From: a virus
Strand: one strand, 5' to 3'
DNA: 34,972 nt
Virus record (IMG/VR): IMGVR_UViG_3300036785_000387
Span: 1-34,972 of that record
Shown here: positions 2,311-21,465 of the stretch, piece after piece
Layout of the letters: every line of letters begins with the position of its first letter
How positions within the stretch are numbered: position 1 is the stretch's first letter
Notes under the pieces: generated by a model
The model's database searches: none
What the model saw: the letters and a program-made list of their open reading frames with translations, nothing else
What the model was told of the DNA's origin: nothing
Position numbers and translations under genes: made by a program

Positions 2311-2381
2311 GGCCCCGGACATGGGATCAATGGGTGACAGATATTTGCTGGTCCGGGGCCTGATCGCGGCTCGCACCGCGA
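2311..2381 (+). ncRNA. Repeated structured element E1
   Basis: Stem GGCCCCGGAC (2311-2320) pairs perfectly with GTCCGGGGCC (2351-2360) and closes a 30-nt loop. TGGGTGACA occupies loop positions 11-19 (2331-2339), and a short inner ATC/GAT helix can flank it. A second hairpin follows at once: TCGCGG (2364-2369) with CCGCGA (2376-2381). No T-tract follows, so it is not an ordinary terminator. Three more copies lie at 8206, 17649 and 21393. Confidence 0.75.
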
Positions 2382-2421
2382 CGCCAACACATTAGAGCAA
2401 AATTCGCTCGGAGGCAAAGCC

Positions 2422-4743
2422 ATGCCGATGAAACCGCATAAGGGCGAGTCACAGTCCGATTTCATGAGCCGCTGCGTTCCGGACATGATAGGCACCGGCA
2501 AAGACAAACGGCCACAAGAGCAAGCGGTCGCGATCTGTCTCGATATCTTTCGGAACAAGGACAAGAAAACAATAAAGCAGATTGATCCGCCGGACGACGA
2601 CGAATCGCACGAAGACTTCCTCGATCGCTGCATGGACCAATTGAGCGACGATGATCCCGAAACGAGCGACGATGATGCGCAAGAGGCATGTCAGGTGATG
2701 TGGGAAGATCGCAGCGCGAAAAAGATCGTGCACAAGACGCATGCGGCGCCCGTAGAGGGCCGCGCATTTATCTTATCAGATGAGACTCCGGATCGCCTTG
2801 GCGACGTTATCAGCACGGAGGGGTGGCAGGTCGAGGCGTTCCGAAAAAACCCTATAGCTTTATTTGGGCATCGATCAGATTTTCCGATCGGCAGGTGGCA
2901 CGACGTTCGCGTCGAGAACAAAGCCTTGCGCGGTGAATTAGAGCTGGCAGCCGAAGGAGTTTCCGCGCGCATCGACGAGATCAGAAAGCTTGTTGACGCC
3001 GGCATTCTGAAAGCGGTCAGTGTCGGCTTTCGACCGAGCAAATCTGAACCACTCAACGCGGCAGATACATCGTCCTTTGCGCCGCAGCGCTATCTGCAAC
3101 AGGAGTTGGTCGAGTGCTCTCTCGTGTCAGTTCCCGCCAATCCAAATGCGCTGGCCGTGGCCAAGTCGCTTCACGTCTCTCCCGCAACGCTAGATATCGT
3201 CTTTGCCGAGCATGGCACTAAAGACGATCCGCGGCGTCGCGGTTTCACCGGCGAGCAGGCCGTTCATCGTCAGAAGCTACACAACAAGGAAAGGACTGGC
3301 GCCATGTCTACGCTCAGTCAACGTATTGCGGAAGTTCAGACCCGCGTTATTGATCTGAAAGACAAGCTCGAAGAACATCTCGGATCCTTGGACAATACCG
3401 ACGTCACCGATGCCGAGATGGAAACTACCAACGACCTGACCACGAAATTGGCGCAGGTCAACAAGCAGCTTGCGTCTTATCAGGAGGCCGAGCGTCAGAT
3501 TGTCGGCAGCGTCAATGGCGGAGGTGGCGGCGCACGGCAGCTTGCGGTTCGCACCGTCGAGCCACCGCGACAGGCGCCGGCGAGCAACGGCAACGGCGAC
3601 GGAGCGCAAGCACGGGCGCCCCTGTTTGCCACCGCGGCAAGCCCTGAGCCAAAGCCGCTTGATCTCATGGTGCGTGCCGGCGTCGTGATGCTGCGGGCGA
3701 AAGTCTTCCAGCGCACGCCAGAGGACGAATGCCGCCGCAGTTACGGCGACCATGAGCCCACGATGCGCACGGTCGAATGGATGATTCGGGCGGCGACCGC
3801 ACCGGCGATGACCAACGTCGTCGGATGGGCTGCCGAGCTGGTCACGCAGATGCAGGGTCCCTACATGGACCTGCTCTATCCGAAGTCGGTCTATCCGCGG
3901 CTCGCGGCTATGGGGATGTCGCTCGACTTCGGCCGGAATGGACGCATCGTCATTCCGACCAGAACGGCGGCGCCGACCATCGCCGGATCGTTTGTTGGAG
4001 AAGGCCAGCCGATCCCCGTGAGGCAAGGGCACTTCACGTCCGTCACGTTGACTCCAAAAAAGTTGGCCGTGATTTCAAGTTATACCAAAGAAATGGAGGA
4101 CTTCAGTACGCCTGCCATCGAGGCGCTGCTGCGTGACGCGATTCAGAACGATACGGCGATCTCTTTGGACAGCGTTCTGTTAGATGCCAATCCGGCGACC
4201 ACGGTACGGCCGCCCGGATTGCTCAATGGCGTGACCCCGCTCACTGCGACGGCTGCCGGCGGTTTCACCGCGATCATCGGTGATATCAAGCAAATGACGA
4301 ATGCCCTGCTCACGCCGACGCGAGGTAATGTTCGCAATCCGGTCTGGTTGTTGAATCCGATTCAGGTCAACTCGCTGAAGCTCACGGTTGCGCCGAACAC
4401 CGGTGATTTCATCTTCGCGGAACAAATGGCCGCGGGAGGACTCAACGGTTTCCCGGTGATCGATTCCGGCACCGTGCCGCCCGGAAGCATGACCTTGTTG
4501 GACGCTGCGGACTTCGTGGCAGTGGGAGCGGAAGCGCCAAGATTTGAACTTTCAGATCAGGCCACCCTACATTTCGAAGACACCACGCCTCTACAAATCG
4601 GCACTCCTGGAACGCCTCCAACCGTTGCCGCGCCCGCGCAATCGCTCTGGCAAACTGATAGTCTCGCACTACGGCTTGTGATGAGATTGAATTGGTATAT
4701 CAGAAGGCCGGTCGTTGCAAATATCGCAGCCGTGACGTGGTAA
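2422..4743 (+). CDS. Prohead protease - scaffold - major capsid protein fusion
   Basis: The product has 773 residues; GGAGG precedes the ATG. Residues about 1-95 hold two copies of an ES..DF..RC...(E)QA...C module common at the N-terminus of phage head proteins. Residues about 110-260 are a Peptidase_S78 prohead protease, with His150 in FGHR and Ser233 in VECSLVSVPAN. Residues 295-365 are heptad-rich and charged, as in an HK97 delta scaffold. Residues about 410-773 are the HK97-fold capsid. The protease would cut the scaffold during maturation. In most HK97-like phages protease and capsid are separate genes. A strong internal ribosome binding site before Met295 suggests that both a fusion and a free capsid are made. 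The capsid half is paralogous to 1187-2305. Confidence 0.9.
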   Translation: MPMKPHKGESQSDFMSRCVPDMIGTGKDKRPQEQAVAICLDIFRNKDKKTIKQIDPPDDDESHEDFLDRCMDQLSDDDPETSDDDAQEACQVMWEDRSAKKIVHKTHAAPVEGRAFILSDETPDRLGDVISTEGWQVEAFRKNPIALFGHRSDFPIGRWHDVRVENKALRGELELAAEGVSARIDEIRKLVDAGILKAVSVGFRPSKSEPLNAADTSSFAPQRYLQQELVECSLVSVPANPNALAVAKSLHVSPATLDIVFAEHGTKDDPRRRGFTGEQAVHRQKLHNKERTGAMSTLSQRIAEVQTRVIDLKDKLEEHLGSLDNTDVTDAEMETTNDLTTKLAQVNKQLASYQEAERQIVGSVNGGGGGARQLAVRTVEPPRQAPASNGNGDGAQARAPLFATAASPEPKPLDLMVRAGVVMLRAKVFQRTPEDECRRSYGDHEPTMRTVEWMIRAATAPAMTNVVGWAAELVTQMQGPYMDLLYPKSVYPRLAAMGMSLDFGRNGRIVIPTRTAAPTIAGSFVGEGQPIPVRQGHFTSVTLTPKKLAVISSYTKEMEDFSTPAIEALLRDAIQNDTAISLDSVLLDANPATTVRPPGLLNGVTPLTATAAGGFTAIIGDIKQMTNALLTPTRGNVRNPVWLLNPIQVNSLKLTVAPNTGDFIFAEQMAAGGLNGFPVIDSGTVPPGSMTLLDAADFVAVGAEAPRFELSDQATLHFEDTTPLQIGTPGTPPTVAAPAQSLWQTDSLALRLVMRLNWYIRRPVVANIAAVTW
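3286..3306 (+). promoter_or_regulatory. Internal ribosome binding site and start for free capsid protein
   Basis: AAGGAAAGGA (3286-3295) lies 8 nt before the in-frame ATG at 3304, exactly at the junction between protease and scaffold. Initiation here would give a 479-residue scaffold-capsid protein (3304-4743), the size of a normal HK97-type capsid precursor. It would let many capsid copies be made per protease, as virion assembly needs. Confidence 0.6.
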
Positions 4744-4778
4744 ATTAGATCGTCAACCACAAGGAAAGGAAACTAAAA

Positions 4779-5033
4779 ATGCCAGAAGAAAAAGCAGGGC
4801 CGCCGCAAGCGGCCTCGAAGCCGACGCCCACGCAGGATGAAAACGACTCTGCGGCGATGGGTGATCACGTCATGCAGAAGGAACCGGACGGAAGTCCGGA
4901 AGAAGAATCGCCGGTGGTGCAGCAACAAAAGGCTGCTGAGGCCCGGAAGAAGAAAAGCATGGAGGCGAAATCTGGCCAGCCGGGTTATCAGACTCGCACG
5001 GTCCAACCCAAGCCGGCGACACCGTCGGCGTAA
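4779..5033 (+). CDS. Small acidic protein sharing a 26-residue motif with the Ig-like protein
   Basis: The product has 84 residues and is hydrophilic, Pro/Glu/Gln/Lys-rich and without hydrophobic segments; probably disordered. A clear AAGGAAAGGA precedes the ATG. Residues 15-40 (PTPTQDEND, AAMG, K34, DGSP) match residues 5-30 of the 7770-8159 protein without gaps. It lies between the capsid and portal genes and is followed by a terminator, so a capsid-associated or assembly role is likely, but no family is recognised. Confidence 0.75.
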   Translation: MPEEKAGPPQAASKPTPTQDENDSAAMGDHVMQKEPDGSPEEESPVVQQQKAAEARKKKSMEAKSGQPGYQTRTVQPKPATPSA

Positions 5034-5048
5034 CAGACTCCCTGCCTT

Positions 5049-5087
5049 GGGGTCTTCAGTTGTGAAAGATCGAAGACCCCTCTTTTT
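5049..5087 (+). terminator. Rho-independent terminator after the capsid genes
   Basis: GGGGTCTTC (5049-5057) pairs perfectly with GAAGACCCC (5072-5080) around a 14-nt loop and is followed by TCTTTTT (5081-5087). It separates the capsid genes from the portal and downstream operon. Partial read-through or a separate promoter is needed for the portal, which starts 21 nt later. Confidence 0.85.
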
Positions 5088-5108
5088 CAAAAAGAGCAAC
5101 GCGAGCCG

Positions 5109-6527
5109 ATGAATCCGAACGGTCTTGTGGCACGCGTTCTCGCGCCGATCTTGCGCGCCGTCGAGGGCGCGTATCGACCCGGGCCTTATCCTATGCCGGT
5201 CAGCGGCGGCTGGCTGTCGGCCGAAGCCGGGGCGCTCAGAAACTGGTGGCAGTGCGGTTATGACCTGATTGGCGGTGAGCGCTCTGCCGTTGTTGAAGCC
5301 TGTATCAGCGCCTACGCACAGACAATAGCGCAATGTCCTGGCGACCATTGGCGATCAAACAACAAAGGCGGCAAGACACGCGTCACAAATTCGGCTGTCT
5401 CGCGCATCTTGCGCAAGCCGAACGCATATCAAACGATCAGCGATTTTCTGCTAGGTCTCACGGACTCATTGTTTCGCGAGGGCAACGCCTACGCAGTGGC
5501 CTTGCGCAATGATCGTTATGAAGTTTCAGAACTGCATCTGATGAACCCGCGCCAGAGCAGGCCGCAGCTCGCGGTGACCGGCGATATCTTCTATACATTG
5601 GGCGGCAACGACGTCATCGCGCAGACGCTCGGCAATCAGCAAATCATCGTGCCGCAGCGTGATGTACTACATGTTCGATTGAGAACAGATTACCGCGTAC
5701 CGCGACCGCTGATCGGGGAAACGCCGCTGATGGCGGCGATGGCCGACGTCATCGCCACGGATGCGATATTGCAGCAGCAGATCGCCTTCTATCAAAATCA
5801 AGCGCGGCCCAGCGCCGTGTTGATGACCGATCGACAGCTCGACAAGCCGGATGTTGATTATTTGCGCGACCGATGGAACGAGCAAACGCGTGGAATAAAT
5901 CAGGGTGGGACACCAATTCTTACTGCTGGACTGAAATTGCAGCCATGGGCAGCCGCGGCCGGGCAGGATAGCAAGGTTGCCGAAATTGCCAAGATCTCCG
6001 ATCAACGCATTGCGCTCGCCTTTCGTATCCCGTTGCAGATCCTTGGCATCGGCGGCGCGACATACTCGTCGGTCGAATTGTTGATGCAGAGTTGGATTTC
6101 GCTTGGCCTTGGATTTGCTCTCAACCACGTCGAGGAAGCGTTCGGGCTCTTATACGATCTGAAAGGACAACCGGAGGACTTCATAGAATTCGACACCGAC
6201 GCATTGCTGCGATCGGCTCTGAAGGATCGCATCGATGCGCTGGTGAAGGGAGTTCAAGGCGGAATTTACGCACCTAATGAGGCGAGAGCGATCGAGGGAT
6301 ATGACGCCGTGCCTTTCGGCGACAGTCCTCGCGTTCAGCAGCAGGTCGTTCCTTTAGAGTTTGCCGGGAAGGTCCCTCCCGCTCCCGCACCAGCAGCACC
6401 GCCGTCAGCACCGCCAACACCGGCGCCCGCGCCAGCCGCGACTGCGAAAGATCATCATGCAAACAAACGGCAAGTCACTCGACTCCTCGACTCCGCAGCC
6501 CGAGCCAGACGGCGATTTGTTGCTTGA
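5109..6527 (+). CDS. HK97-family portal protein
   Basis: The product has 472 residues, normal for the Phage_portal family. The portal forms the dodecameric ring at one capsid vertex through which DNA passes. Recognisable blocks are the N-terminal helical region, ISAYAQTIAQCP, the RILRKPNAYQT.SDFL segment, LFREGNAYAVALRN, a central TPLMAAMADVIATDAILQQQIAFYQNQARPSAVL stretch (clip/stem region), and RIALAFRIPLQILGI. The C-terminus is a Pro/Ala-rich tail. The start has only a weak AGAG upstream. It follows a terminator, and its last 71 nt overlap the start of the collagen-like gene in another frame. Here the portal comes after the capsid genes, the reverse of the usual portal-protease-capsid order. 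Confidence 0.92.
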   Translation: MNPNGLVARVLAPILRAVEGAYRPGPYPMPVSGGWLSAEAGALRNWWQCGYDLIGGERSAVVEACISAYAQTIAQCPGDHWRSNNKGGKTRVTNSAVSRILRKPNAYQTISDFLLGLTDSLFREGNAYAVALRNDRYEVSELHLMNPRQSRPQLAVTGDIFYTLGGNDVIAQTLGNQQIIVPQRDVLHVRLRTDYRVPRPLIGETPLMAAMADVIATDAILQQQIAFYQNQARPSAVLMTDRQLDKPDVDYLRDRWNEQTRGINQGGTPILTAGLKLQPWAAAAGQDSKVAEIAKISDQRIALAFRIPLQILGIGGATYSSVELLMQSWISLGLGFALNHVEEAFGLLYDLKGQPEDFIEFDTDALLRSALKDRIDALVKGVQGGIYAPNEARAIEGYDAVPFGDSPRVQQQVVPLEFAGKVPPAPAPAAPPSAPPTPAPAPAATAKDHHANKRQVTRLLDSAARARRRFVA

Positions 6528-7728
6528 TGTTTGGCGCGAGACGCTCGCCGAGGCGTTGGCGCATGAACAGGAGCATTGGGAGCGCGAACGCATCAGACAA
6601 CAGGAGCAATCGCAGCGCGAGCGTGCACTGATCGAGGCGCAAGCCGGCCGCACGATTGCCGAGCTGCGCGCCGAGATTGCAGACCGCAGCGCCAGACAGA
6701 ATGCAGCGTTTGCCGCCAAGCTCATTGAAATGGACAAGATGGTCATCGAGCGGCTCGCCATGGTGCGCGACGGCGCTCCCGGCCGCGATGGCAAGGATGG
6801 CGTTCCGGGCCTGATGGGATTGCAAGGTCCTGCAGGGGAAAGGGGCGAGCAAGGTCCGATCGGACCGGCCGGCAAGGATGGGGAATCGATCACCGGCCTT
6901 CCGGGCGAACGCGGGGAAAGAGGGGCGCCTGGCATTTCGATAGAAGGTCCACCGGGGCCGCGAGGCGATCAAGGTCCGCAAGGCGAGTCCATTATCGGGC
7001 CGCCCGGACCAGCCGGCGAGAGCATTACAGGGCCGCCCGGTCCGCGCGGCGAAAGTCTGCGGGGATTGCAAGGGCTTACCGGCGAAAGAGGCGAAAAAGG
7101 AGAAAGGGGCGAGTCCATTGTTGGCCCGCCGGGCCCACCCGGAGAGCACGGCGAGAGCATCACTGGCCCGCCCGGACCGATCGGCCCGGAAGGCCCAGTA
7201 GGGAAGTTGTCACATGTGAAACATTACGCGCCGGAGGCGGTGCATTATCGGGCCGACGTGGTGACCTGGGATGGTTCTACATTTCAGGCCATGCGCGACA
7301 CCAAGCATGCCCCGCCGCACGCCGATTGGATTTGCCTCGCGGCTGCAGCCCCGTCGGCGCGGGGCCTGACTATCAAGGGGACGTACAACGAGGCGCTGGT
7401 TTATGGCGAAATGGATATCGTGGCCCGCAACGGTGGGGCGTTCGTCGCCCGCAAAGACAAGCCTGGAATCTGCCCAGGGCCAGACTGGCAGCAGATCGCT
7501 CAGCCGGGGAAAGCCGGCCCGCGCGGAGATAGGGGCGAATCTGGTACCCTCGGAGCACCCGGCCCGGCCGGAAGGAGCGGCGAGCCCGGCAGATCGGCTC
7601 CTGCCCTGCGCGAGTGGAAGCTCGACCGGAAGACCTATACCGCGACCCCGATTCTGAGCGACGGGACCGAAGGCCCGCCGCTCGCGTTGCGCGGGCTGTT
7701 CGAGCAATTTATCGCCGAAGCGAAGTAG
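6457..7728 (+). CDS. Collagen-like repeat protein with coiled coil and carbohydrate-binding-like domains
   Basis: The product has 423 residues from the ATG at 6457, inside the portal 3' end; the frame is open further upstream but only as portal shadow. Residues 20-100 are charged and helical (coiled coil). Residues about 107-248 are Gly-X-Y collagen repeats (GAPGRDGKDG...), with interruptions such as GESIIGPPGP. Residues about 250-345 hold two short units of the type Y..GDVV.Y.G..F.A......P....W, resembling chitin-binding CBM5/12 modules. A second short Gly-X-Y run and a C-terminal unit follow. Trimerisation by the coiled coil and collagen helix is expected. It sits among head genes, so it may be a capsid fibre or surface protein rather than a tail fibre; this is inference. 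Confidence 0.85.
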   Translation: MQTNGKSLDSSTPQPEPDGDLLLDVWRETLAEALAHEQEHWERERIRQQEQSQRERALIEAQAGRTIAELRAEIADRSARQNAAFAAKLIEMDKMVIERLAMVRDGAPGRDGKDGVPGLMGLQGPAGERGEQGPIGPAGKDGESITGLPGERGERGAPGISIEGPPGPRGDQGPQGESIIGPPGPAGESITGPPGPRGESLRGLQGLTGERGEKGERGESIVGPPGPPGEHGESITGPPGPIGPEGPVGKLSHVKHYAPEAVHYRADVVTWDGSTFQAMRDTKHAPPHADWICLAAAAPSARGLTIKGTYNEALVYGEMDIVARNGGAFVARKDKPGICPGPDWQQIAQPGKAGPRGDRGESGTLGAPGPAGRSGEPGRSAPALREWKLDRKTYTATPILSDGTEGPPLALRGLFEQFIAEAK

Positions 7729-7769
7729 GCCACGCGTAACTTTTTGCGCTCCGAAATGAGGGGATTGTG

Positions 7770-8159
7770 ATGGCAGTGAATCCGACCGGGACGCAAGCGG
7801 AAAACGATGCAGCCGCCGTCGGGAATACGGTAGTCAGTAAGGTCGCGGATGGATCGCCGGCCGATCCAAATACCCCACCGTGGATGCAAGCGCTTCCTGC
7901 AAACGTGACGCTGCCGATCGTCACCGGGTCGGCGACCGTCGGCTCGACGCTTCAGTGCTCGACCGGCTCGTGGAATTACAGCGGTCTGGCATACGCCTTC
8001 CAGTGGTTACGCGCGGGCGCGAATATCGCCGGGGCGACTTCGAGCAGCTACGTGGTGGTGACCGCCGATAAGACAAACGTACTGAGCTGCAAGGTGACGG
8101 CCACGAACGCTAAGGGATCAACACCTGCAACGTCGGCAGCAACAGCCGTCGTTCCATAA
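7770..8159 (+). CDS. Ig-like domain protein, probable capsid decoration
   Basis: The product has 129 residues from ATG 7770 (GAGGGG upstream; a GTG at 7767 adds one residue). Residues 5-30 (PTGTQAEND, AAVG, K24, DGSP) repeat the motif of the 84-residue protein near the capsid genes. Residues about 45-129 form one bacterial Ig-like domain with the typical Y.FQWLR.G..I.GAT...Y.V...D....L.C.V.A.NA.GS pattern. Ig-like domains are common on phage capsid surfaces, where they may bind glycans or cells. The shared N-terminal motif could anchor both proteins to the same partner. RNA element E2 lies between it and the next gene. Confidence 0.8.
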   Translation: MAVNPTGTQAENDAAAVGNTVVSKVADGSPADPNTPPWMQALPANVTLPIVTGSATVGSTLQCSTGSWNYSGLAYAFQWLRAGANIAGATSSSYVVVTADKTNVLSCKVTATNAKGSTPATSAATAVVP

Positions 8160-8205: not shown

Positions 8206-8255
8206 TGATCACGGCACGCGCTGGTTGGGTGACAAAGCCGCTCTGGCCGCGATCA
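8206..8255 (+). ncRNA. Repeated structured element E2
   Basis: Stem TGATCACGGC (8206-8215) pairs with GCCGCGATCA (8246-8255) with one A-C mismatch. The loop is exactly 30 nt, with TGGGTGACA at loop positions 11-19 (8226-8234) and TG at its end, as in E1, E3 and E4. An inner GCT/AGC helix flanks the motif. The stem sequence is quite different from the other copies. No clear second hairpin follows, but ACGACATGA after it is shared with E3. Confidence 0.7.
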
Positions 8256-10872: not shown

Positions 10873-11316
10873 ATGTCTAACGAAGAGCAGAAGACCTCAT
10901 ATCGTTCCACATCCACATCGACGCGGAGCAAGGACACAGAGGAACGCATCCGTGGCCCGCAACCGCAGGCCATGCCTGTTGGACGAAAGCCAACTGTCGC
11001 GGCGCCGGTGCTTGAGCCGCATCAGTATCGTGACATCCGGGCCAAAAAATTGGCCACGGCGCAACCCCAAGCCGCCGTGGCGGCGGTGCCGACATTTGAT
11101 GCACGAGCGCAGGCGCGAAAAGATCGGCTGGCTCGCATTCGGTCCATGGTGCCTGATCAGACCGTGCGCGTGAACCCGCGTGACGAAGGCATACGCAAAT
11201 TGTTGCGCCATCCGTTGCGCGGCCGTGGCTTCCCGTCCACCGGCTCGGTCGAATGGCCGCTCGATACCTTCACGCGGCGGCGCATCCGTGACGGCGACGT
11301 TACGATTGCGCGTTGA
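10873..11316 (+). CDS. DUF2635-type protein upstream of the tail sheath (Mu gp38-like)
   Basis: The product has 147 residues with AGGAGAG before the ATG. Residues 1-95 are hydrophilic and probably disordered (Ser/Thr/Arg/Gln-rich). The C-terminal 50 residues (MVPDQTVRVNPRDEG...LP-like loop...FTRRRIRDGDVTI) carry the V.P..G...RRRL.DGDV pattern of DUF2635. Mu-like phages encode that domain just before the sheath, usually in proteins of about 60-70 residues. The long N-terminal extension is unusual. Confidence 0.7.
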   Translation: MSNEEQKTSYRSTSTSTRSKDTEERIRGPQPQAMPVGRKPTVAAPVLEPHQYRDIRAKKLATAQPQAAVAAVPTFDARAQARKDRLARIRSMVPDQTVRVNPRDEGIRKLLRHPLRGRGFPSTGSVEWPLDTFTRRRIRDGDVTIAR

Positions 11317-11357
11317 GGTTTAGAAAACCTTTCGGCCACACAGAGGAGACTACAACC

Positions 11358-13691
11358 ATGCCTATCAGTTTTGCACAGATTCCTTCTGATATTCGCGTAC
11401 CGCTTTACTGGGTCGAAGTCGACCCATCGATGGCCGGCCTGCCAATGATTCATTTGCGATCATTGTTGGTCGGCACGATGCTTCCGAGCGGCACGGCGGC
11501 ACCAGACATTCCGATGATCATCGGCACGCAAGCCCAGGTCGATGACAAGTTTGGAATCGGTTCCGAATTGGCTCGAATGTTTAAGGCGTTCTTCGCTAAT
11601 AATTTTGCCAACGAAGTGTGGGCAGGGCCGCTGTCAGAACCTCTGGGAAGTCCGGCGGCAGCGCAAGGCGCCATTGTCGTGACGGCTCCTCCGGAGCAGC
11701 CCGGTACGATTCATCTGTACATCGGTGGGCAGCATGTTGTCGTAAACCACGGCATCGATACGATTCAGCAGATTGCTCAAGAGATCCATGACGCGATCAT
11801 GGCGACGGGTGCCTATGCTGGTCAAATCGATGATCTGCCGGTGTCTGCTTCTGTCGTTGCGGCGGCGACCGGTGGCGGCAATGCGGTATCGCACGGCAGC
11901 AATTTGAAGGTGTCGTCTGTGATACCGGGAACAGATCCCGGCATTGATATGGGTGACACGATAAGTGGTAGTGGCATTCCGTCGGGCACGATTGTCACCT
12001 CGCAGTTGACTGGGGTGACGGGCCAAGCGGGCGACTACACGTGCAGCCAGGACATGACGTCGGCGGTGACCAACTTCGATCTCAACTTGGCGGCAACGGG
12101 TCAAATCACGGCTTTGACTGCCAGCACTACGATTTCGGTCACGGGCGTGACGGCTTCCGGCGGCACGATCCCGATTGGTGGCAGCATACTTGCGGCAACC
12201 GGGTCGGCACCGCCGGTCGGTATTCCAGCAGGGTCCACGATCGTCTCGCAGATCAGCGGCAACCCGCAGGGCGACGGCAGTTATACGATCAGCCATCCAA
12301 CGACTGCTGCAATAACCCCTGCTGTGACCGCGAAATTTGGTGTCACGGCGCAAGGCGTTGGAACCGCTTGGGGTCAATTCCTCGATGTGACCGGCGCCAC
12401 CGGTACGATCGAGATTGGCGCGCAAGTCACCGGGACCGGCATTCCGTCGTCGCCGACCTTCGTCATGACACAGAACTCTGGCACGTCTGGAGGTAATGGC
12501 ACTTACGTCATCAGCCAGGATGCTGATTGCGGGCCGCTGGCCAGCCCGGTTCCCGTGACCTTCTCCGCAACTGGTAATGCGGTGATTTTGAAGTGCAACT
12601 GGAAGGGTGTCAGCGGCAACGACATCCGGATTGATCTGAACTACTTCGGCAAGATCGGTGGCGAGACACTGGCGCCGGGCTTGCAGATCTCGTTGCCTCC
12701 GTCAAACTTCTTGACTCTGGGTTCTGGAACGCCAGATTTCAGTAAGCTGATCACCAATATGGGCGAGACGGAATTCGAGTACGTCGCGATGCCATATACC
12801 GACGCGACCAGCCTCAATGCCTGGGAAGTGGAATACGGATTTTCAGACAACGGGCGATGGGGATGGAAACGCCAGCACTTCGGGCACGTCTTTTCGGCTC
12901 GACGTGGTGCGTTCTCTGATTTGATCGCGTTCGGCAACTCGCGCAATAGCGGCGTAGTCTCCGTGATGGCATTCGAGGAGACCGTGCCTACGCCGGTCTT
13001 CGAGCTGGCGGCGGCTTATACTGCAAAGGCGCAGCGAGCACTGAGCAATGATCCAGCACGTCCGTTGCAGACGTTGCAACTGCTCAATTGTCTGCCGGCG
13101 CCGTTCCATGAGCAGTTCAACTGGCTCGAAATAAATGATTTGGCCTGGAATGGAATGGCGATTCAAAAGGTCTGGCCGGGCAGTGGTTACCCGCAGATCG
13201 CCCGAGAGCAGACGACTTATCAGCTAAATCTGTACGGGTACAGTGACGACGCCTATGAGCTGGTCACCACGCTGGCGACGTTGGCATTGCTGATTCGCAA
13301 TCAGCGTTACAACATCACCAGCAAATTCCCGCGCCATAAATTGGCCGACGACGGTACGCGTTTTGGGCCGGGACAGGCAATCGTAACTCCGGGCATTCTC
13401 AAAGCCGAGTTGGTGTCCGAGTATTACATCGACCAGTACAATGGTTTGGTCGAAAACGCCGCCGCTTTTGTACAGCACCTAATCGTGGAAAGGGACCCGA
13501 ATAACCCGAACCGCGTGAACGTGCTCTATCCTCCCGATCTGATCAACCAACTTCGCATTTTCGCCGTGCTCGCCCAATTTAGATTGCAGTACGATCGCGG
13601 CGTGGATGCAGAGATAATCGGGCCGAGTTCGCAGTTCTACAGCGGCAGTGCTCAGGCATCGACGTTGCCGCCCCTGACATTCGGCGCGTGA
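11358..13691 (+). CDS. L: Contractile tail sheath protein (Mu gpL-like) with a large insertion
   Basis: The product has 777 residues from ATG 11358 (GAGGAG upstream); the frame is open 15 codons further but without a site. The sheath surrounds the tube and contracts at infection. Mu gpL-like signatures are I..DIRVP..W.E.D, the RWGWKRQHFGHVFSARRG region, DPARPLQTLQLLNCLPAP, and a C-terminal block with FPRHKLADDGTRFGPGQAIV, VENAAAFVQHLIVERD and LYPPDLINQLR. Residues about 171-406 are an insertion of Gly/Thr/Ser-rich beta repeats, roughly three units of G..I.G.GIP.GT.I.SQ...G.G.Y..S. Mu gpL is about 495 residues; the insertion explains most of the difference. It probably sits on the outer sheath surface. 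Confidence 0.93.
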   Translation: MPISFAQIPSDIRVPLYWVEVDPSMAGLPMIHLRSLLVGTMLPSGTAAPDIPMIIGTQAQVDDKFGIGSELARMFKAFFANNFANEVWAGPLSEPLGSPAAAQGAIVVTAPPEQPGTIHLYIGGQHVVVNHGIDTIQQIAQEIHDAIMATGAYAGQIDDLPVSASVVAAATGGGNAVSHGSNLKVSSVIPGTDPGIDMGDTISGSGIPSGTIVTSQLTGVTGQAGDYTCSQDMTSAVTNFDLNLAATGQITALTASTTISVTGVTASGGTIPIGGSILAATGSAPPVGIPAGSTIVSQISGNPQGDGSYTISHPTTAAITPAVTAKFGVTAQGVGTAWGQFLDVTGATGTIEIGAQVTGTGIPSSPTFVMTQNSGTSGGNGTYVISQDADCGPLASPVPVTFSATGNAVILKCNWKGVSGNDIRIDLNYFGKIGGETLAPGLQISLPPSNFLTLGSGTPDFSKLITNMGETEFEYVAMPYTDATSLNAWEVEYGFSDNGRWGWKRQHFGHVFSARRGAFSDLIAFGNSRNSGVVSVMAFEETVPTPVFELAAAYTAKAQRALSNDPARPLQTLQLLNCLPAPFHEQFNWLEINDLAWNGMAIQKVWPGSGYPQIAREQTTYQLNLYGYSDDAYELVTTLATLALLIRNQRYNITSKFPRHKLADDGTRFGPGQAIVTPGILKAELVSEYYIDQYNGLVENAAAFVQHLIVERDPNNPNRVNVLYPPDLINQLRIFAVLAQFRLQYDRGVDAEIIGPSSQFYSGSAQASTLPPLTFGA

Positions 13692-14792: not shown

Positions 14793-17622
14793 GCAAGACG
14801 AAGTCGTACAAATTCGCGTAAGCGTGGACGATCAGGCAAGTAAGCAGCTTGCCGCGATCAGCGAGCAGCTTGTTCAGTTACGTGAAGCTGGTACCAAGAC
14901 CGCGCAAGGTGTTGCAGCCGCGCCTGCACAGATGCGCGAGGGCGTGCAAGCGCTCACAGGGGCGATCCGGCAGGCGGGATTTATCGGGGGTATTGTAGGT
15001 GGAGTAACGGCAGAATTTGTCCATCAATTGACGGATCTTGGCGCCAATCTGGTCCATCGAGCCACCGACTTTCGTGGTCTCTCTGAATCGATGAAGGACC
15101 TTGAGACTCATGCTCGTGGTGTTGGGCAGAGCATGACGGGCTATCAAGGGCTACAGCGGCAATTGCAACTAGGAGGTATGAGCGCAAAGGAGGCACAAGG
15201 CACGATCAGCCAGTTATCAGATCTTAATCTTGAATTGCAACGATACGGCGCCCAGAACGCGCCGACCACGCATCGACTCTTGCAGGATGTCGCCGATCCA
15301 GCAACCTTCCAATATATCTCTAAATTCATGGAGCAGATGGAAGGCGCCCCGGTAGCGCGGCAGATCGATCTGATAAGCGAAGCGCTGGAGAACATGCGCC
15401 AGACGATGACGGCGCGTGGTGAGGCAGGTGGAGTCGAGGCGGCGCAAGAGCAGTTCTTGGCGAGGCTTGGCCTGACGCCAGCGGCGTTCGCCAAGATGGC
15501 GGAGGGCTATCGCGTCGCCCAGAAACTTAACCAGGAACTCGCCGCGGCAGATCCTGCACGCGAGCAAATGCTTCGGGATCGCACGAAGGAAACTGAAAGG
15601 TTCGCCCAGGAGAGCCTGACAGCGTCCTTCCTCTGGAAAGACATCGGGGAAAGCATTGCCGGAAGCCTGTTGCATGGTATCGGACTCAACGATGCCATGA
15701 ATCAATTGAACCAATGGCTGAAAAAGAATCTAACAGAGTTAGAAACGTTTGAGCGGGTGTTTCGAGAGACCGGCTCCTTCGAGCAGGCGATAGGAGCCCT
15801 CGCACCGGCTTGGGCTCCATTCGGCAAGCAGCTAGACCTTGCGAAGACAGATCTGATAAAGGCCGGGGAAGAGATCAAGAGCTGGAATCAGGCCTTCATA
15901 GATGCCGGCAAGGCAGGGCACGATCAATTCACCGTACCTTTGGAAAAAGCTCTCATGGACCTGTGGAATAACTTACCAGCAGGGCTACGAGACTTCCTGA
16001 CTGCGAAGAGCCCGCTGTTGAAACAGCCGGAACATCCGAAATCGGAAGACCTTCCCAAGACGCCAGAGGGCTTCCGCGAGCTTCAACGTCGCGGCCGAGA
16101 AATGAGGGAGCGGCAACGGCAAGAACAGCAACCGCAGCAACAAGACGGCCAGCCAAAACGGCCGGTAGAACAACTAGACCCCATGACGGGGCTTCCATAT
16201 GAGGATGAAGCGCGGACCGGTGGGACTCGGCCGCCGTCTCCTCCTCCACCGCCAGCACCACCGCCATCACCACCACCAGCAGCACCAGCACCACCGCGCT
16301 CTATACGCGATTATTTGCCACACGCATTCCGCATGCGCGAGGAGGAAGAAAAGCGCAAGCGCGAAGAGGAAGAGCGCATGCGGCAGCTAGGCGGCCCTCC
16401 AGGATGGAGAGGTCTTCCGACATCGAGGCACATAGAAAAACCAGGTCCGCCGCCCGCTGATGAGCCTGAGCAGATTAGAAAATTTTGGGAGAACGCAGAC
16501 GAGATGATCGAGGCTGCGCGGCAACACCGCGGGTCCGCTGGGAAGCAAACAGATCTCGATAAGCTTGCTGGTGCAGTAGACAAGATCATTCCGCCGGGCG
16601 GCGGTAAGCCGAGCATTTTGCCGCCAGTAAACGTGCCACCGCAGGGCGGCGGACAGCCGAGACCGCAGCGTCTTGCTGATGAGATTCCCGCGCCGAGACC
16701 GCAGGATCTTGCTGATGAGGGAGGCGCAGGCCAGCCGATCATTATGCCACCAATTCCCGCGCCGAGACCGCAGGGTCTTGCTGATGAGCGAGGCGCAGGC
16801 CAGCCGATCATCTTGCCGCCAAACCTGATGCAGGATTTGATCAAGAGCGCGCAGCCGGAAGCTGGTGGCGGCCCGAGCGGTCTGCCCGAGGGCATTCAGC
16901 TCGCAGGCTTCAAGAGTAGCTTGGCGGCAGGAGTTGCCGAGCACATAGCAGAGGAATTTCTGAGTCCTGGTCATATGCTAAAAACTGGCTCGGAACTTTA
17001 TGAGATGGCGAGGACGGGCCAGGATGTAGCGAAGATGCAAGGCAGCGGGCTGCAACCGCCGAAAGCGCCATCGGTAGCGGAAACTATCCTGTCCGCGTTG
17101 CCATTTGGCTTGGGTGCGATTCCGCCAATGCTGCAAAAGGATGTGGAAGAGGGCAATCGCCTGCGCACTCTTCTTCGGGAAAAGCTTGGTGTTGAAGATC
17201 CCCAGGAAGAAGCTCCCTGGACACCCGGCGGAGCATGGCATCAGGGCGGCGGCGAGAAAGACGAACAATCAACCTTCGATAAGCGATTTGGAATGTGGCC
17301 TGATCAGGCGCCGGCGCCCAGCGCCTTTGAAAATCGTTTTGGTGTCTGGCCCGGAATGGGCGCCGAGAAGATGGATGAGACCTCGGCGAAGCTCGATCAA
17401 GCCGCCAATACAAACGTCAACATCAGCGGAGCAGGTAAGATTTCCGTCGACGTGCGCGCACCGCCGGGAACGAGCGTTGACGCGCAAGGCGAGGGATTTT
17501 TCAAATCGACGGAGATCACCAGACTCACGCAGATGATGCCCGCCGATTTCGGGCCGGCGCCGGTGACAGGAGTAAGCGCCGGCCAAGGTGTGGCCGCAAA
17601 TGGGACGGTGGGGGCTGCGTAG
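14785..17622 (+). CDS. Tail tape measure protein
   Basis: The product has 945 residues from ATG 14785 (GGAAGAG upstream). The start is inside the end of the frameshifted chaperone frame, consistent with coupled synthesis. The N-terminal 330 residues are mostly helical with a Gly-rich hydrophobic stretch (GFIGGIVGGVTAEFVHQL). Residues about 440-560 are Gln/Arg- then Pro-rich low complexity (PPSPPPPPAPPPSPPPAAP). Residues about 620-680 carry three copies of PRPQ.LADE. The C-terminal third has two KRFGMWP/NRFGVWP-like units. The protein fixes tail length and is ejected at infection. The large Pro-rich middle is unusual, so simple length scaling may not hold. Confidence 0.88.
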   Translation: MAEQDEVVQIRVSVDDQASKQLAAISEQLVQLREAGTKTAQGVAAAPAQMREGVQALTGAIRQAGFIGGIVGGVTAEFVHQLTDLGANLVHRATDFRGLSESMKDLETHARGVGQSMTGYQGLQRQLQLGGMSAKEAQGTISQLSDLNLELQRYGAQNAPTTHRLLQDVADPATFQYISKFMEQMEGAPVARQIDLISEALENMRQTMTARGEAGGVEAAQEQFLARLGLTPAAFAKMAEGYRVAQKLNQELAAADPAREQMLRDRTKETERFAQESLTASFLWKDIGESIAGSLLHGIGLNDAMNQLNQWLKKNLTELETFERVFRETGSFEQAIGALAPAWAPFGKQLDLAKTDLIKAGEEIKSWNQAFIDAGKAGHDQFTVPLEKALMDLWNNLPAGLRDFLTAKSPLLKQPEHPKSEDLPKTPEGFRELQRRGREMRERQRQEQQPQQQDGQPKRPVEQLDPMTGLPYEDEARTGGTRPPSPPPPPAPPPSPPPAAPAPPRSIRDYLPHAFRMREEEEKRKREEEERMRQLGGPPGWRGLPTSRHIEKPGPPPADEPEQIRKFWENADEMIEAARQHRGSAGKQTDLDKLAGAVDKIIPPGGGKPSILPPVNVPPQGGGQPRPQRLADEIPAPRPQDLADEGGAGQPIIMPPIPAPRPQGLADERGAGQPIILPPNLMQDLIKSAQPEAGGGPSGLPEGIQLAGFKSSLAAGVAEHIAEEFLSPGHMLKTGSELYEMARTGQDVAKMQGSGLQPPKAPSVAETILSALPFGLGAIPPMLQKDVEEGNRLRTLLREKLGVEDPQEEAPWTPGGAWHQGGGEKDEQSTFDKRFGMWPDQAPAPSAFENRFGVWPGMGAEKMDETSAKLDQAANTNVNISGAGKISVDVRAPPGTSVDAQGEGFFKSTEITRLTQMMPADFGPAPVTGVSAGQGVAANGTVGAA
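16657..16818 (+). repeat. Tandem repeat inside the tape-measure gene
   Basis: Three copies of a unit encoding PRPQ(R/D/G)LADE occur. The last two are longer, with about 70 bases almost identical, including IPAPRPQ and GAGQPII. Recent slippage or unequal recombination is the likely origin. Confidence 0.75.
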
Positions 17623-17648
17623 GGCTGGCGTCTCGGCGTGAATAAAGT

Positions 17649-17717
17649 GGCCCCGGACACCGTGTAGCTGGGTGACAGAGCTGATGTGGTCCGGGGCCGG
17701 ATCGTGGTCTTACACGA
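17649..17717 (+). ncRNA. Repeated structured element E3
   Basis: Stem GGCCCCGGAC (17649-17658) pairs perfectly with GTCCGGGGCC (17689-17698), with a 30-nt loop and TGGGTGACA at loop positions 11-19 (17669-17677). An inner AGC/GCT helix flanks the motif. The second hairpin is TCGTG (17702-17706) with CACGA (17713-17717). Compared with E1 (TCGCGG/CCGCGA) both sides changed together. It fills the gap between the tape measure and the DNA-circularisation gene. Confidence 0.75.
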
Positions 17718-17764
17718 CGACATGACTGTTCACCCGCGAGCGCGGCATTGCAAGTGCAATTATC

Positions 17765-18262
17765 ATGAGTGAAATCAAAGATATCCACAATCCATGGCGG
17801 GACTCGTTGGTGCCGGCGGAGTTCGATGGCGCGCAGTTCTTCTGCGAGATCGGCGCATATGAGTGTGGCCAGCGGATCGTCATCCACGAGTTTCCGAAAA
17901 AGGATGAATGTTATACGGAGTTAATGGGGCGCAGATACTACGCCTTCACGGTTCGAGGCTACTGCATCCAGAGCAGCAAGGAGCCGGACTACCGCCAGAA
18001 GCGCGACGCGTTGCGCGATAAGTTGGATGAATGGCAGGCCGGGAATCTGACGCTGCCGACCATGAAGCCGAAGCACGTCATCTGCCGGCAATATCGCCTA
18101 ACGGAGGATGAGCACCTTGGCGGCTATTGCGTTTTCGACATGACGTTCGCGGAAGCCTCAACGCCGCCATTCAAGCCGACGCCGGCGCCAGATTTTCTTC
18201 TCCTGCAAGCGGCCGATACGCTACAGGCGCGGACGTTGCAAATCATGGCCGGGGCTGTCTGA
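17765..18262 (+). CDS. DNA circularisation N-terminal domain protein (Mu gpN, N-terminal part)
   Basis: The product has 165 residues. Residues about 8-120 match the DNA_circ_N domain: PWRDSLVPAEFDGAQFFCE, then G.R.V.HEFPKKDE.Y.E.MGRR...F.V.GY, RQKRDALRDKLDEWQAG.L.LPTM and Y..FDMTF. In Mu, gpN is a baseplate/tail protein of about 490 residues; here the domain is a gene of its own, with the next frame (18264-18932) continuing the rest. The stop TGA and the next ATG are one base apart. No good ribosome binding site is visible. Confidence 0.8.
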   Translation: MSEIKDIHNPWRDSLVPAEFDGAQFFCEIGAYECGQRIVIHEFPKKDECYTELMGRRYYAFTVRGYCIQSSKEPDYRQKRDALRDKLDEWQAGNLTLPTMKPKHVICRQYRLTEDEHLGGYCVFDMTFAEASTPPFKPTPAPDFLLLQAADTLQARTLQIMAGAV

Positions 18263-18263
18263 G

Positions 18264-18932
18264 ATGTTTAGAGAGGACTCGTTAGAAGCCCAGCCGATCG
18301 TCGATGCCGCGTTGGTGTCGTTGCTTTCATGGGCGCCGACACGGGGGCGCGATGGTGCCAATTTACGAGAGCAGGTCAATTCGGTTCGGGCGCAGGCTCT
18401 TGCGCTTTTGCAGGCCGATGCCATCGGGGATGATCTCGTAGCGTGCTTCGATCTCGCGGTGACGACTGGGATCAACCTTCAGCAGGTTGAGCGCGTGCGG
18501 CAGATCGCAGAGAGCGCCACCCCGACAACTCCCGGCGCGCAGATGATCAAAGATTCTCTCATTCAACTCGCGTTTTGTACTCAAGCGCGTCTCATTGTTG
18601 CCATGACATTCGTCAGCCGCACCGACGTTGAAAATGTGCGTGCAATGATAAACGCCAGCTTCGCTCCAGCGGAAGAAGCGATGGCCGATCAGATGGACGC
18701 GATGACATATCGCGCCGTGATTTCTTTGCATGCCGCGATCTCATTCTTTCTGGTCCAGACGGCGCGTCCACTGCCGCAGATGCTCACCTACCGATTTTCC
18801 TATCCGAGGTCCACTTTGGCGATCGCGCAACGTCTCTACGCTGATGCGACGCGTGGCGACGAGATCAGAAATGAGAATGGAATCATTCACCCGCTCTTTG
18901 CTCCGATGATGGGAAGGGCTTTATCGGCTTAA
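18264..18932 (+). CDS. Second part of the gpN-like baseplate protein
   Basis: The product has 222 residues, mainly helical and Ala-rich. The C-terminal block LAIAQRLYADATRGDEIRNENGIIHPLFAP matches the end of Mu gpN-like proteins (YRLYGDA.RADE...N...HP.F.P). Together with the preceding gene it gives about 390 residues, near the size of one gpN. The ATG follows the previous stop after a single base, so it is translationally coupled. The split could be natural subunit separation or a recent mutation. Confidence 0.7.
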   Translation: MFREDSLEAQPIVDAALVSLLSWAPTRGRDGANLREQVNSVRAQALALLQADAIGDDLVACFDLAVTTGINLQQVERVRQIAESATPTTPGAQMIKDSLIQLAFCTQARLIVAMTFVSRTDVENVRAMINASFAPAEEAMADQMDAMTYRAVISLHAAISFFLVQTARPLPQMLTYRFSYPRSTLAIAQRLYADATRGDEIRNENGIIHPLFAPMMGRALSA

Positions 18933-18937
18933 GCAAC

Positions 18938-20047
18938 ATGCCAGCAAAGAGTAGCGAAAAAGTCACGCTGAGCGTGGGTGGCGGCAACTTCGAAGACTTC
19001 GAGACGGTCTGGGTGCAATCGACCTGGGGTGACACCTTTGATCAGTTCAAGTTCACATGCGCGGAGCGCGTTGGTGGCCAGCAGTTCAAGCCCGGTGACA
19101 AGTGTTCGGTGAAGCTTGCCGGACAAGATGCTATTGTCGATGGCATAATCTTGAGTCGTCAAGTCGCCTACGATGCGTATCGTCACGGAGTCATGATTTG
19201 GGGAGTGAGCAAAACATGGGCCGCGGTGCGCTCGTCAATAAATCACGGGACATGCAGCTTTGACGACAAGGACATCAAGGGGATAGCGGATGAAATTCTC
19301 AAGCCGACTGGTGTCAAGTGTGAGACCAAGGGAAACATTGATCTCACCAAGTGGCCCTACATGCACTGCCAGCCGGGGGAGTCGATCCACTCGTTCTTAG
19401 AGCGCATCGCGCGAGATCGCAACGTCATCCTGACTTGCGACGTGAAAGAAGGCAAGTTGCTTCTCGTTGCGCGGGATTTTGACAACGGCAATCAGGGTCA
19501 GCTCATCGAGGGGCAAAACATCCTCAAGATGCAATGCGAGATGAGCAAGAAGAACTCATACAGCAAGTACATGTTAAACGGTCAGACCCCTGCCAATAAC
19601 AAGTTGAACATGAAGGCTGCATCTGAGCAGAGAAAATCGGTAGACGGCACGATGGATCAATACAGTTGTCGCATGATTTCCATGGAACAGCCGGTTTGTA
19701 CTCCCAAAGAGGTGGAGACGCGGGCCACGAACGAGCAGATGTTTGCGGCGACGCAGGAACTCCAGGCGACGGTCACGGTGCAAGGTTGGCAGCCGGGAGG
19801 AGCAAAAGGCGGCGGTGAGCTTTGGCAAAAGGGAAAGAAGGTAAAAGTGACATCGCCGATGGCCATGCTGGATGAGCAACTGGCCATCCAGCAGGTGACT
19901 TTCACGCAAGATGATCGAAGCGGTTCGCTTACAACGCTGGTATTGGTGCAGCCGTACAAGATCGGAGAAGCCAAAGGAAAATTGAGCGGATCACCTGGGC
20001 AATCCAGCAGCAGCGGCGGCACCGGCAATTTGCCTGCGGTGTCATGA
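18938..20047 (+). CDS. Baseplate hub protein (Mu gp44 / T4 gp27-like)
   Basis: The product has 369 residues. It has the hub pattern of gpP/gp44 and gpD-type proteins: an N-terminal beta domain (VTLSVGGGNFEDFETVWVQSTW...FKFTCAER), PGDKCSVKLAGQDAIVDGIILSRQVAYDA, SKTW..VRSSI, and the GESIHSFLERIARDRNVIL segment. A C-terminal KVTSPMAMLDEQLAIQQVTFTQDDRSGS.TTLVLVQP follows, then a Ser/Gly tail. The trimeric hub joins the tube to the spike. It sits between gpN and the gp45-like spike, as in Mu. Confidence 0.85.
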   Translation: MPAKSSEKVTLSVGGGNFEDFETVWVQSTWGDTFDQFKFTCAERVGGQQFKPGDKCSVKLAGQDAIVDGIILSRQVAYDAYRHGVMIWGVSKTWAAVRSSINHGTCSFDDKDIKGIADEILKPTGVKCETKGNIDLTKWPYMHCQPGESIHSFLERIARDRNVILTCDVKEGKLLLVARDFDNGNQGQLIEGQNILKMQCEMSKKNSYSKYMLNGQTPANNKLNMKAASEQRKSVDGTMDQYSCRMISMEQPVCTPKEVETRATNEQMFAATQELQATVTVQGWQPGGAKGGGELWQKGKKVKVTSPMAMLDEQLAIQQVTFTQDDRSGSLTTLVLVQPYKIGEAKGKLSGSPGQSSSSGGTGNLPAVS

Positions 20048-20076
20048 TGGCCACCTAAAAGGGGAAAAGAAACCAA

Positions 20077-21390
20077 ATGCAGCGCGCGACTCCTGTTGAC
20101 AGTTCAATTCGCGGTTATGGTGCCGGCGGCGCACGAGGACTCGTGCACGAGGCCGACGACTCGCAGTACATGCAGGAAGTCAAAGTCAACTACATGAAGT
20201 ATGAGACGCGGAAGAAGGTCGAGCATCCGCAAAACTATGGCTTCAGCTCCTACTGTCGCAAGGCCGAATACGGCAGCGATGATTCCGGCGATAAGCCGGA
20301 CAGCGGGACCCCGGAGAAGCCAATCAAGAGTTCTGCCGAGCACTTTGGTCAGTTCATGGGAGGCAATCGCGCGTTTCCAGTGATTGAAGTCTTGGACGAT
20401 CGACGTTATCGATTGTTCAACAATCAAGAGGGCGAGGTCTGGGTCTATGACGATCAGCAGCAAAAGGTCCAGATCAAGCGCAATCTGATACTGACACGGA
20501 GTCAGTTCAAGATCGTGCACCGCATAATTAAAGACGAGCAGCAGGCCGATAAGAAGAAGACCCGCGATCAATCCAAGCAGGACATCGACGATGCGAAGCA
20601 AGATGGTCAAGGCCAGCAGCAGCAATCCGGCGGCGGTGGCCAATCCAGCAGCGACAACGGCGTCGAGCAATCGGGAACGCAGGACAAGCCATGGAAGCCG
20701 TTGTCATCCTATGCCGCCGACAAGGATTCGATTGTTCTCGTCAGGCAGCAGGACAACGACGACGGCGACCTTCTCTCCAAGCTTTGGTTGACGGACGGCG
20801 AGGGCGACGCAACCCCGAAGGGGGAGAAGCAGAAGCCCAAGGGACCGCTGCTCGAAGGAAAGTTCGACGAGAAGAAGCAGACGATCAGCTTCACGGTCTA
20901 TTACCAACCCGACAGCGAGCAGCAAAAGCCTAGATTGGTATTCACCCAGGATGGGGAAGACGATTACTTGGAGATGCAGACGCTCGATCAGGAAGGAAAC
21001 CTGACCTTGTGGTTTCGAATGGATCAACAAGGAAAGATGATAACGCTGCAAACTCTGGATCAGGGCACGCCCAAGCAGACCATTCAGTTGGACAACAATA
21101 AGCAGCAAATTCATTCGTTCACCAAGAGCACCGATGTCATCCTCGACGAGAACAAGAAAAAGGTTCTGGTGGGCGATCAGAGCGCTAACACGCCAGCGGC
21201 CATGCGCGGATCGATCGACAGCAAGGGGCATCGGATTATTGCTCATGTCTGTCCGAAGGTGTTGCTGCCGGAAGGATCAGGTGGCGGCGGCAGCGGCGGC
21301 AACAGCGGCTCCCCACCAACTAGCGCCCCGCCTCCCAGCACGGGAACAGGCAGCGGAGGATCTGGCTCAGGCGGCGTGATCGAGGCATAG
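20077..21390 (+). CDS. Baseplate spike protein (Mu gp45 / gpV-like), enlarged
   Basis: The product has 437 residues with AGGGGAAAAG before the ATG. The N-terminus carries the gp45-like OB region: RG.V...DDSQYMQEVKVNYM..E.R..VEHPQNYGFSS, then AEHF..F.GGNRAFPVIEVLDDRRYR and NQEGEVWVYDDQQQKVQIKRN. Residues about 145-290 are a charged Lys/Asp/Gln/Ser-rich insertion. It is followed by repeated beta strands (MQTLDQEGNLTLWFRMDQQGKMITLQTLDQ) typical of a spike beta-helix. It ends in a Gly/Ser/Pro tail. It pierces the outer membrane in Mu-like phages. Mu gp45 is about 197 residues, so this one is more than twice as long. Confidence 0.85.
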   Translation: MQRATPVDSSIRGYGAGGARGLVHEADDSQYMQEVKVNYMKYETRKKVEHPQNYGFSSYCRKAEYGSDDSGDKPDSGTPEKPIKSSAEHFGQFMGGNRAFPVIEVLDDRRYRLFNNQEGEVWVYDDQQQKVQIKRNLILTRSQFKIVHRIIKDEQQADKKKTRDQSKQDIDDAKQDGQGQQQQSGGGGQSSSDNGVEQSGTQDKPWKPLSSYAADKDSIVLVRQQDNDDGDLLSKLWLTDGEGDATPKGEKQKPKGPLLEGKFDEKKQTISFTVYYQPDSEQQKPRLVFTQDGEDDYLEMQTLDQEGNLTLWFRMDQQGKMITLQTLDQGTPKQTIQLDNNKQQIHSFTKSTDVILDENKKKVLVGDQSANTPAAMRGSIDSKGHRIIAHVCPKVLLPEGSGGGGSGGNSGSPPTSAPPPSTGTGSGGSGSGGVIEA

Positions 21391-21392
21391 TT

Positions 21393-21465
21393 GGCGCGGC
21401 TGGACAATGCCCTTTTGGGTGACACCGCATCATTGGTCCGGCCGCGCCCCGCCGATGTGATCGGC
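21393..21465 (+). ncRNA. Repeated structured element E4
   Basis: Stem GGCGCGGCTGGAC (21393-21405) pairs with GTCCGGCCGCGCC (21436-21448) over 13 bp with one U-G wobble. The loop is again 30 nt, with TGGGTGACA at positions 11-19 (21416-21424). An inner ATGC/GCAT helix flanks the motif. The second hairpin is GCCGAT (21451-21456) with ATCGGC (21460-21465). It begins two bases after the spike stop codon. Confidence 0.75.

What the first reader, a model, noticed from the sequence alone, without database searches (positions are those of the whole stretch)
2311..21465. Four-copy structured RNA-like element with a fixed 30-nt loop in every large gap of the late operon
Seen directly: E1 (2311-2360), E2 (8206-8255), E3 (17649-17698) and E4 (21393-21448) each have a 9-13 bp stem closing exactly 30 nt. 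All loops begin with A, carry TGGGTGACA at positions 11-19, and end in TG. Stems are GGCCCCGGAC in E1 and E3, TGATCACGGC in E2 (one A-C mismatch) and GGCGCGGCTGGAC in E4 (one wobble), each with its own partner. In every copy a short inner helix of different sequence can flank the motif (ATC/GAT, GCT/AGC, AGC/GCT, ATGC/GCAT). Conserved loop with covarying stems is the mark of a structured RNA. The gaps holding them (116, 130, 142, 113 nt) are the only ones over 100 nt between 1187 and 33476. None has a T-tract. Possible roles: RNA processing or stability site, phage-protein binding site, antitermination, or a packaged RNA motif. I recognise no known family.
Basis: partly seen in the sequence, partly recalled or inferred. 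Interest (0 to 1): 0.88.

Follow-up and report, generated by a model that had tools for sequence, protein, structure and literature searches.

The report
Scattered RNA guides against sibling phages
The four hairpins look like single-copy guide RNAs of the recently described TIGR-Tas type, scattered between a phage's virion genes, and their paired 9-letter guides match the corresponding genes of sibling phages better than the phage's own, which points to RNA-guided competition or homing between related viruses.

Summary
In detail: four hairpins, each closing exactly 30 nt, in the only four gaps over 100 nt. Stem mismatches are 22 A·C against 2 G·T on the stated strand (p=4e-5), so the RNA is the minus strand, antisense to the late genes. 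It reads stem-CCA-N9-UG-NNNN-CCA-N9-UG-stem, the stem-loop tigRNA architecture of TIGR-Tas (Faure et al. 2025, PMC12045711). The same hairpins form arrays beside TasA genes in nine other viral records, 35/35 units co-directional with TasA; a TasA profile matches solved TasR (9e-18) and TasH (1e-6). New here: the units are single, dispersed, and without a tas gene in the window or closest relatives. Stems and flanks are conserved between siblings while spacers are mostly unrelated. Read by the published rule (spacer A on one strand, spacer B on the other), 9 of 22 group guides match at least 17/18 positions of a sibling phage in the homologous neighbourhood of the unit, against 3% for other units' guides and 0/22 in reverse order. 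The phage's own copy is never the best match; at E3 it differs only by synonymous changes. I infer RNA-guided exclusion or intronless homing. Effector and cutting are unshown.

The parts
2311..2360 (-). E1 tigRNA-like stem-loop unit. RNA strand: spacer A GCAAATATC (2340-2348), cap UGUCACCCA (2331-2339), spacer B TTGATCCCA (2322-2330)
8206..8255 (-). E2 unit. RNA: spacer A GAGCGGCTT (8235-8243), cap (8226-8234), spacer B ACCAGCGCG (8217-8225)
17649..17698 (-). E3 unit. RNA: spacer A CATCAGCTC (17678-17686), cap (17669-17677), spacer B GCTACACGG (17660-17668)
21393..21448 (-). E4 unit. RNA: spacer A ATGATGCGG (21425-21433), cap (21416-21424), spacer B AAAGGGCAT (21407-21415)
6748..6764 (+). Window's own allele of the E2 guide's target (15/18; sibling G024 17/18; G006, G025, G026 16/18), 1.5 kb from E2, inside ORF 6361-7728
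17910..17926 (-). Window's own allele of the E3 guide's target (14/18; siblings L275, L277, L278 17/18), 252 bp from E3 in the baseplate-hub gene 17765-18262; differs from siblings by synonymous changes only (CYTELM)
2216..2232 (+). Candidate own allele of an E1 target (15/18), 104 bp from E1, in the 1187-2305 head gene; no better sibling allele held
21223..21239 (-). Candidate own allele of an E4 target (14/18; sibling L278 15/18), 182 bp from E4, in gene 20077-21390

Best explanation
Each hairpin is one stem-loop guide RNA of the TIGR-Tas type, made from the minus strand: stem, box C (CCA), 9-nt spacer A, box D (UG), a 4-nt cap closed by the G-C of UG and CCA, box C, 9-nt spacer B, box D, stem. 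A Tas (Nop-domain) protein, encoded outside the sequence held or supplied in trans, would load it; spacer A pairs with one DNA strand and spacer B with the other. The guide is aimed at the allele of a virion gene carried by sibling phages at or near the place where the unit itself sits (0.14-1.5 kb away), while the unit's own genome carries a variant allele that matches less well. In a mixed infection this would exclude or convert the sibling's allele and favour inheritance of the unit with its linked escape allele, as free-standing T4 homing endonucleases do. Shown from sequence: unit anatomy, strand bias, kinship with TasA-linked arrays, hypervariable spacers in conserved stems and flanks, significant sibling targets and weaker self match. 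Inferred: transcription, loading by a Tas protein, binding or cutting, and exclusion or homing as the outcome.
For: Boxes, 9-nt dual spacers and palindromic stems match the published stem-loop TIGR arrays. Tandem arrays of the same unit lie beside TasA-like genes in nine unrelated records, 35/35 units co-directional with TasA; the TasA profile finds TasR 9mty at 9e-18 and TasH at 1e-6. Strand: A·C 22 vs G·T 2. Orthologous E1 and E2 sites have 90-100% identical stems and boxes, but spacers 11-56% identical. Targets: with spacers sharing the central base pair, 9/34 units reach at least 17/18 against 2/260 permuted pairs and 0/34 in reverse order; within homologous neighbourhoods 9/22 against 3.1% for other units' guides and 0/22 reversed. 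Alignable strong targets map 0.14-1.5 kb from the unit, with one exception (G006:456, about 4 kb). The owner is never the best-matching genome where a better sibling allele is held; non-wobble mismatches 1-4 in self against 0-1 in the best sibling. E3 self allele is recoded only synonymously. Unit G006:20682 is absent at that site from relatives that carry its intact 18/18 target.
Against: No Tas gene in the window, in the 45-kb relative G006 or other close relatives, although these may be fragments; two more distant portal relatives have one. TasA-type proteins known from the paper lack a nuclease, so conversion by a double-strand break is not assured. No transcript evidence, and no clear promoter for the minus strand. 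About half of the group's units have no target above background in the sequences held, E1 and E4 among them. The published TasR target was 18 bp; most matches here are 17 bp with a shared central pair. Target sites were found through the relatives' matches, so 'self is not best' is partly built in (about p=0.04 by hand for never best). An RNA read from the plus strand is not formally excluded.
Confidence: 0.7

Rival explanations
1. The units are TIGR guides that regulate the phage's own neighbouring genes (for example by TasA binding), and the mismatches are drift or tuned affinity.
For: Targets lie next to the unit in the same genome; own matches of 14-16/18 remain; solo TasA has no nuclease.
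Against: The owner is not the single best match in any set of orthologues (E1 is a tie), and self has at least as many, usually more, non-wobble mismatches than the best sibling; guides at one site are unrelated between siblings although the target genes are conserved.
Confidence: 0.12
2. The units are TIGR guides used to block or destroy competing phages without any homing: interference by binding or cutting, the unit staying put.
For: Same sequence evidence as the best explanation; sibling contigs come from the same or neighbouring samples, e.g. G006 and its targets G007 and G025 share sample prefix 3300036828.
Against: Targets sit beside the unit's own site rather than anywhere in the sibling genome, which is what linkage-dependent homing predicts; units are present or absent at otherwise collinear sites.
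Confidence: 0.12
3. The hairpins are late-operon RNA features of the plus strand: processing or stability hairpins or a protein-binding site.
For: All 17 dispersed units in five records of the group have the same orientation to the late genes; plus-strand hairpins fold well.
Against: A·C over G·T bias, identical units in TasA-linked arrays, hypervariable 9-nt segments with sibling targets in one order only; no function of that kind explains the spacers.
Confidence: 0.04

Closest known systems
TIGR-Tas, stem-loop array type (TasA; Faure et al. 2025, PMC12045711)
   Same: Palindromic stem, box C/D-like CCA and UG motifs, two 9-nt spacers, a cap of conserved length, Nop-domain partner in relatives; split targeting on both strands fits the sibling matches
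   Different: Single units dispersed between virion genes on the antisense strand instead of a tandem array next to tas; no tas gene found in the window or closest relatives; natural targets proposed here, while the paper reports that genuine targets are hard to identify
Free-standing homing endonucleases of T4 (SegF, SegG; PMC2988022)
   Same: Sit between essential phage genes, act on a related phage hundreds to thousands of bp from their own site, cause marker exclusion and co-conversion
   Different: Here the specificity lies in a 50-nt RNA with two spacers, not in a protein; cutting not shown
IS110 bridge RNA and IS1111 seekRNA
   Same: Guide RNA of a Nop-type (IS110 C-terminal) protein with two guide segments for opposite DNA strands
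   Different: No DEDD transposase found with these units, single loop, no insertion sequence ends
Box C/D snoRNA
   Same: Box C/D-like motifs flanking two guide segments; solitary units as in snoRNAs
   Different: Guides fit DNA alleles of sibling phages; no L7 k-turn; bacterial virus

Membership tests
TIGR-Tas stem-loop tigRNA | Palindromic, variable stem in place of edge repeats | tested here: met
TIGR-Tas stem-loop tigRNA | Two spacers of 8-12 nt flanked by box C (CCA) and box D (UG) | tested here: met
   CCA and UG invariant on the RNA strand, both spacers 9 nt; E1-E4 conform
TIGR-Tas stem-loop tigRNA | Spacers vary while the rest is conserved | tested here: met
TIGR-Tas stem-loop tigRNA | Tandem array next to a tas gene | tested here: not met
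   Single units; no tas gene in window or closest relatives. Met for the same unit type in nine other records. The unit is therefore described as a dispersed variant of the unit type, not as a standard TIGR-Tas locus
TIGR-Tas | Partner protein is a Nop-domain Tas protein | tested here: inconclusive
   For array-bearing records yes; for the window no partner found, record possibly a fragment
TIGR-Tas | Target recognised by spacer A on one strand and spacer B on the other | tested here: inconclusive
   Sequence matches follow this order and not the reverse; binding itself cannot be tested here
TIGR-Tas | RNA expressed, processed and bound by Tas | not testable with these tools
   needs RNA-seq and pull-down
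IS110 / IS1111 element | DEDD transposase with bridge or seek RNA within IS ends | tested here: not met
   PF02371 absent from the window; proteins next to arrays match only the C-terminal Nop-like part
Any Rfam family | Score above gathering threshold | tested here: not met
   no match at E up to 1 to the four sites

The most novel reading that the evidence does not exclude
RNA-guided intronless homing: single tigRNA genes act as selfish, allele-exchanging elements in phage virion operons, each aimed at the sibling allele beside its own site, with escape by synonymous recoding of the linked target. This would give TIGR-TasA guides natural targets and a biological role.
Probability: 0.45. Interest if true: 0.97.

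Novelty: new variant of a known kind. Interest (0 to 1): 0.9.

Why it matters
The TIGR-Tas paper states that genuine targets of the spacers and the role of nuclease-lacking TasA are open (PMC12045711). Here guides of the stem-loop type have statistically supported natural targets: conserved sites of sibling phages next to the guide's own position, with the guide-bearing genome carrying a worse-matching, in one case purely synonymous, variant. If right it is an RNA counterpart of homing endonucleases and marker exclusion, and the TasA-bearing mycobacteriophages of M. smegmatis found on the way could make it testable in the laboratory.

Tried and rejected
Rfam: nothing at the sites. Inner helices in the loop: not conserved. 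IS110-type mobile element: only the Nop-like C-terminal relation holds. Self-targets over whole genomes: none above shuffled guides for most units. First stem count that favoured G·T was biased because the finder allowed G·T; redone symmetrically it reversed. Cross-search of all held sequence without regard to kinship: no general excess, only the group-specific hits. An exact scan of IMG/VR for the E3/G006 degenerate target at 18 bp found nothing, because the sibling targets found later share the central base pair (17 bp); E1 gave three exact 18-bp hits in other contigs L272-L274, about what chance allows, not pursued. 85 hits of the motif in bacterial genomes are mostly chance; the Rhodoplanes elegans copies are clearly real, and L056 has a 10-bp stem but was not followed up. 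Promoter and terminator scans of the four gaps: no consistent signal.

Full report
Observation. They occupy the only gaps over 100 nt in the late operon. Chance of such a stem at a random position is 0.29%. Rfam 15 has no match. The window is a 34,972-base virus record with myovirus head, sheath, baseplate, fibre and lysis genes.

Relatives of the element. An exact pattern scan of IMG/VR found the unit in ten stretches and wider patterns in many more; in each true copy the stem is different but paired, the loop is 30 nt, and the motif sits at 11-19. A general rule (CA N9 TGG...CA N9 TGG plus stem) finds 86 units in 27 records, nearly all with 9 + 9 + 9 nt loops. Some viruses have tandem arrays (eight units in L012, eleven in G023). 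Next to arrays lies a gene of phrog_4285 'transposase' or a weak Pfam Transposase_20 match.

Identification. A literature search led to TIGR-Tas (PMC12045711). Its stem-loop arrays have palindromic stems, box C and box D, two 8-12 nt spacers and a Nop-domain TasA protein related to the IS110 C-terminal domain. A profile of eight proteins from our arrays finds the TasR structure 9mty at 9e-18 and TasH entries at 1e-6, so these are Tas-family proteins.

Strand. Counting stem mismatches with a symmetric rule gives 22 A·C and 2 G·T on the TGGGTGACA strand; on the opposite strand these are G·U wobbles. That strand reads CCA-N9-UG-NNNN-CCA-N9-UG, which is the published box C and box D, and in nine TasA-bearing records 35 of 35 units are then co-directional with TasA. 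So in the window the RNA is antisense to the late operon; all 17 units in the window, G001, G006, G007 and L277 share this orientation. On 44 units the stem covaries strongly, with the caveat that pairing was a selection criterion.

Dispersed guides. The window, G006 (45 kb), G001, G007 and others carry single units between virion genes and no Tas gene was found in them; two more distant portal relatives have one. At the orthologous E1 and E2 sites stems and boxes are 90-100% identical and flanks similar while the spacers are 11-56% identical; at E3 the spacers of window and G006 are similar. Units can be absent from relatives at the same site. The same design (conserved stems and boxes, changing 9-nt spacers) is seen upstream of the 'transposase' gene in the mycobacteriophages examined, with CG as box D.

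Targets. The paper's 8-nt 3' overhang implies a target of spacer A followed by the reverse complement of spacer B. G006:20682 matches 18/18 in G007 and G024 and 17/18 in G001 and G026. Across 34 units and 1.1 Mb, with the two spacers sharing the central base pair, 9 units reach at least 17/18 against 2 of 260 permuted pairs and 0 of 34 in the opposite order. Restricted to sequence homologous to the 4 kb around each unit, 9 of 22 reach 17/18 against 3.1% for other units' guides and none in reverse order. The strong targets that can be aligned map to a single site 137-1467 bp from the unit, except G006:456, whose match maps about 4 kb away. The owner's allele is never the single best match (at E1 it ties with G024) and has 1-4 non-wobble mismatches against 0-1 in the best sibling allele. 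At E3 the site encodes CYTELM in every close relative; the window differs only by synonymous changes. L277 has its unit at the E3 position with other spacers and targets G006. E1 and E4 have only local own-genome matches (15 and 14 of 18) and are unproven.

Mechanism. The pattern is that of T4 free-standing homing endonucleases, whose cleavage sites lie hundreds to thousands of base pairs from their gene and which exclude markers of related phages (PMC2988022). I propose RNA-guided exclusion or homing; the sequence evidence reaches the guide and the target, while effector, cutting and conversion are inferred. Own-gene regulation is less likely because the owner is not matched best.

Limits. 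The records are mostly fragments of metagenomic viruses; relatives are few; sites were found through relatives, so the self comparison is partly conditioned; the spacing with a shared central base pair was chosen after looking at several spacings (gaps -2 to +1 are all given); E-values and counts depend on the relatives held. No expression data exist.

Noticed in passing
phage records NC_028810 (L259), MN119379 (L266), MW862983 (L267), NC_023726 (L269) and others: 84 isolated phages, 76 of them mycobacteriophages (the cluster-A-like ones examined have a Cas4-type exonuclease gene nearby), carry a phrog_4285-like protein annotated hypothetical or transposase; the seven aligned have about five stem-loop units (CCA-N9-CG boxes, changing spacers) in the roughly 340 nt upstream, so these look like TIGR-TasA loci in M. 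smegmatis phages.
   Followed up: partly
L257 (Rhizobium phage RHph_X2_25), 3100-3600 upstream of 3566-4621: TasA-like gene with several stem-loop units of TGGGTT type in a phage of Sinorhizobium americanum.
   Followed up: partly
window 1187-2305 and 2422-4743: A second, shorter copy of the C-terminal major head domain precedes the protease-capsid fusion gene.
   Followed up: no
window 11313-13691: Tail sheath of 792 aa: known sheaths match it in two pieces covering 60-64% of the query, which suggests a large internal insertion.
   Followed up: no
window 2361-2385, 17699-17720, 21449-21467: Short GC hairpins directly beside E1, E3 and E4; at E1 and E3 the arm resembles the TGATCGCGG stem of E2-type units, possibly a collapsed second unit (L007 and L014 have real tandem pairs there).
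   Followed up: no
L228 (G023) 366-992: Array of at least eleven units with two alternating stem types (GCGGTCGC and GTGCGCCCGGC) and no Tas gene detected in the 15-kb contig.
   Followed up: no
L272, L273, L274: Exact 18-bp matches to the E1 guide in three viral contigs of other samples; could be chance.
   Followed up: no
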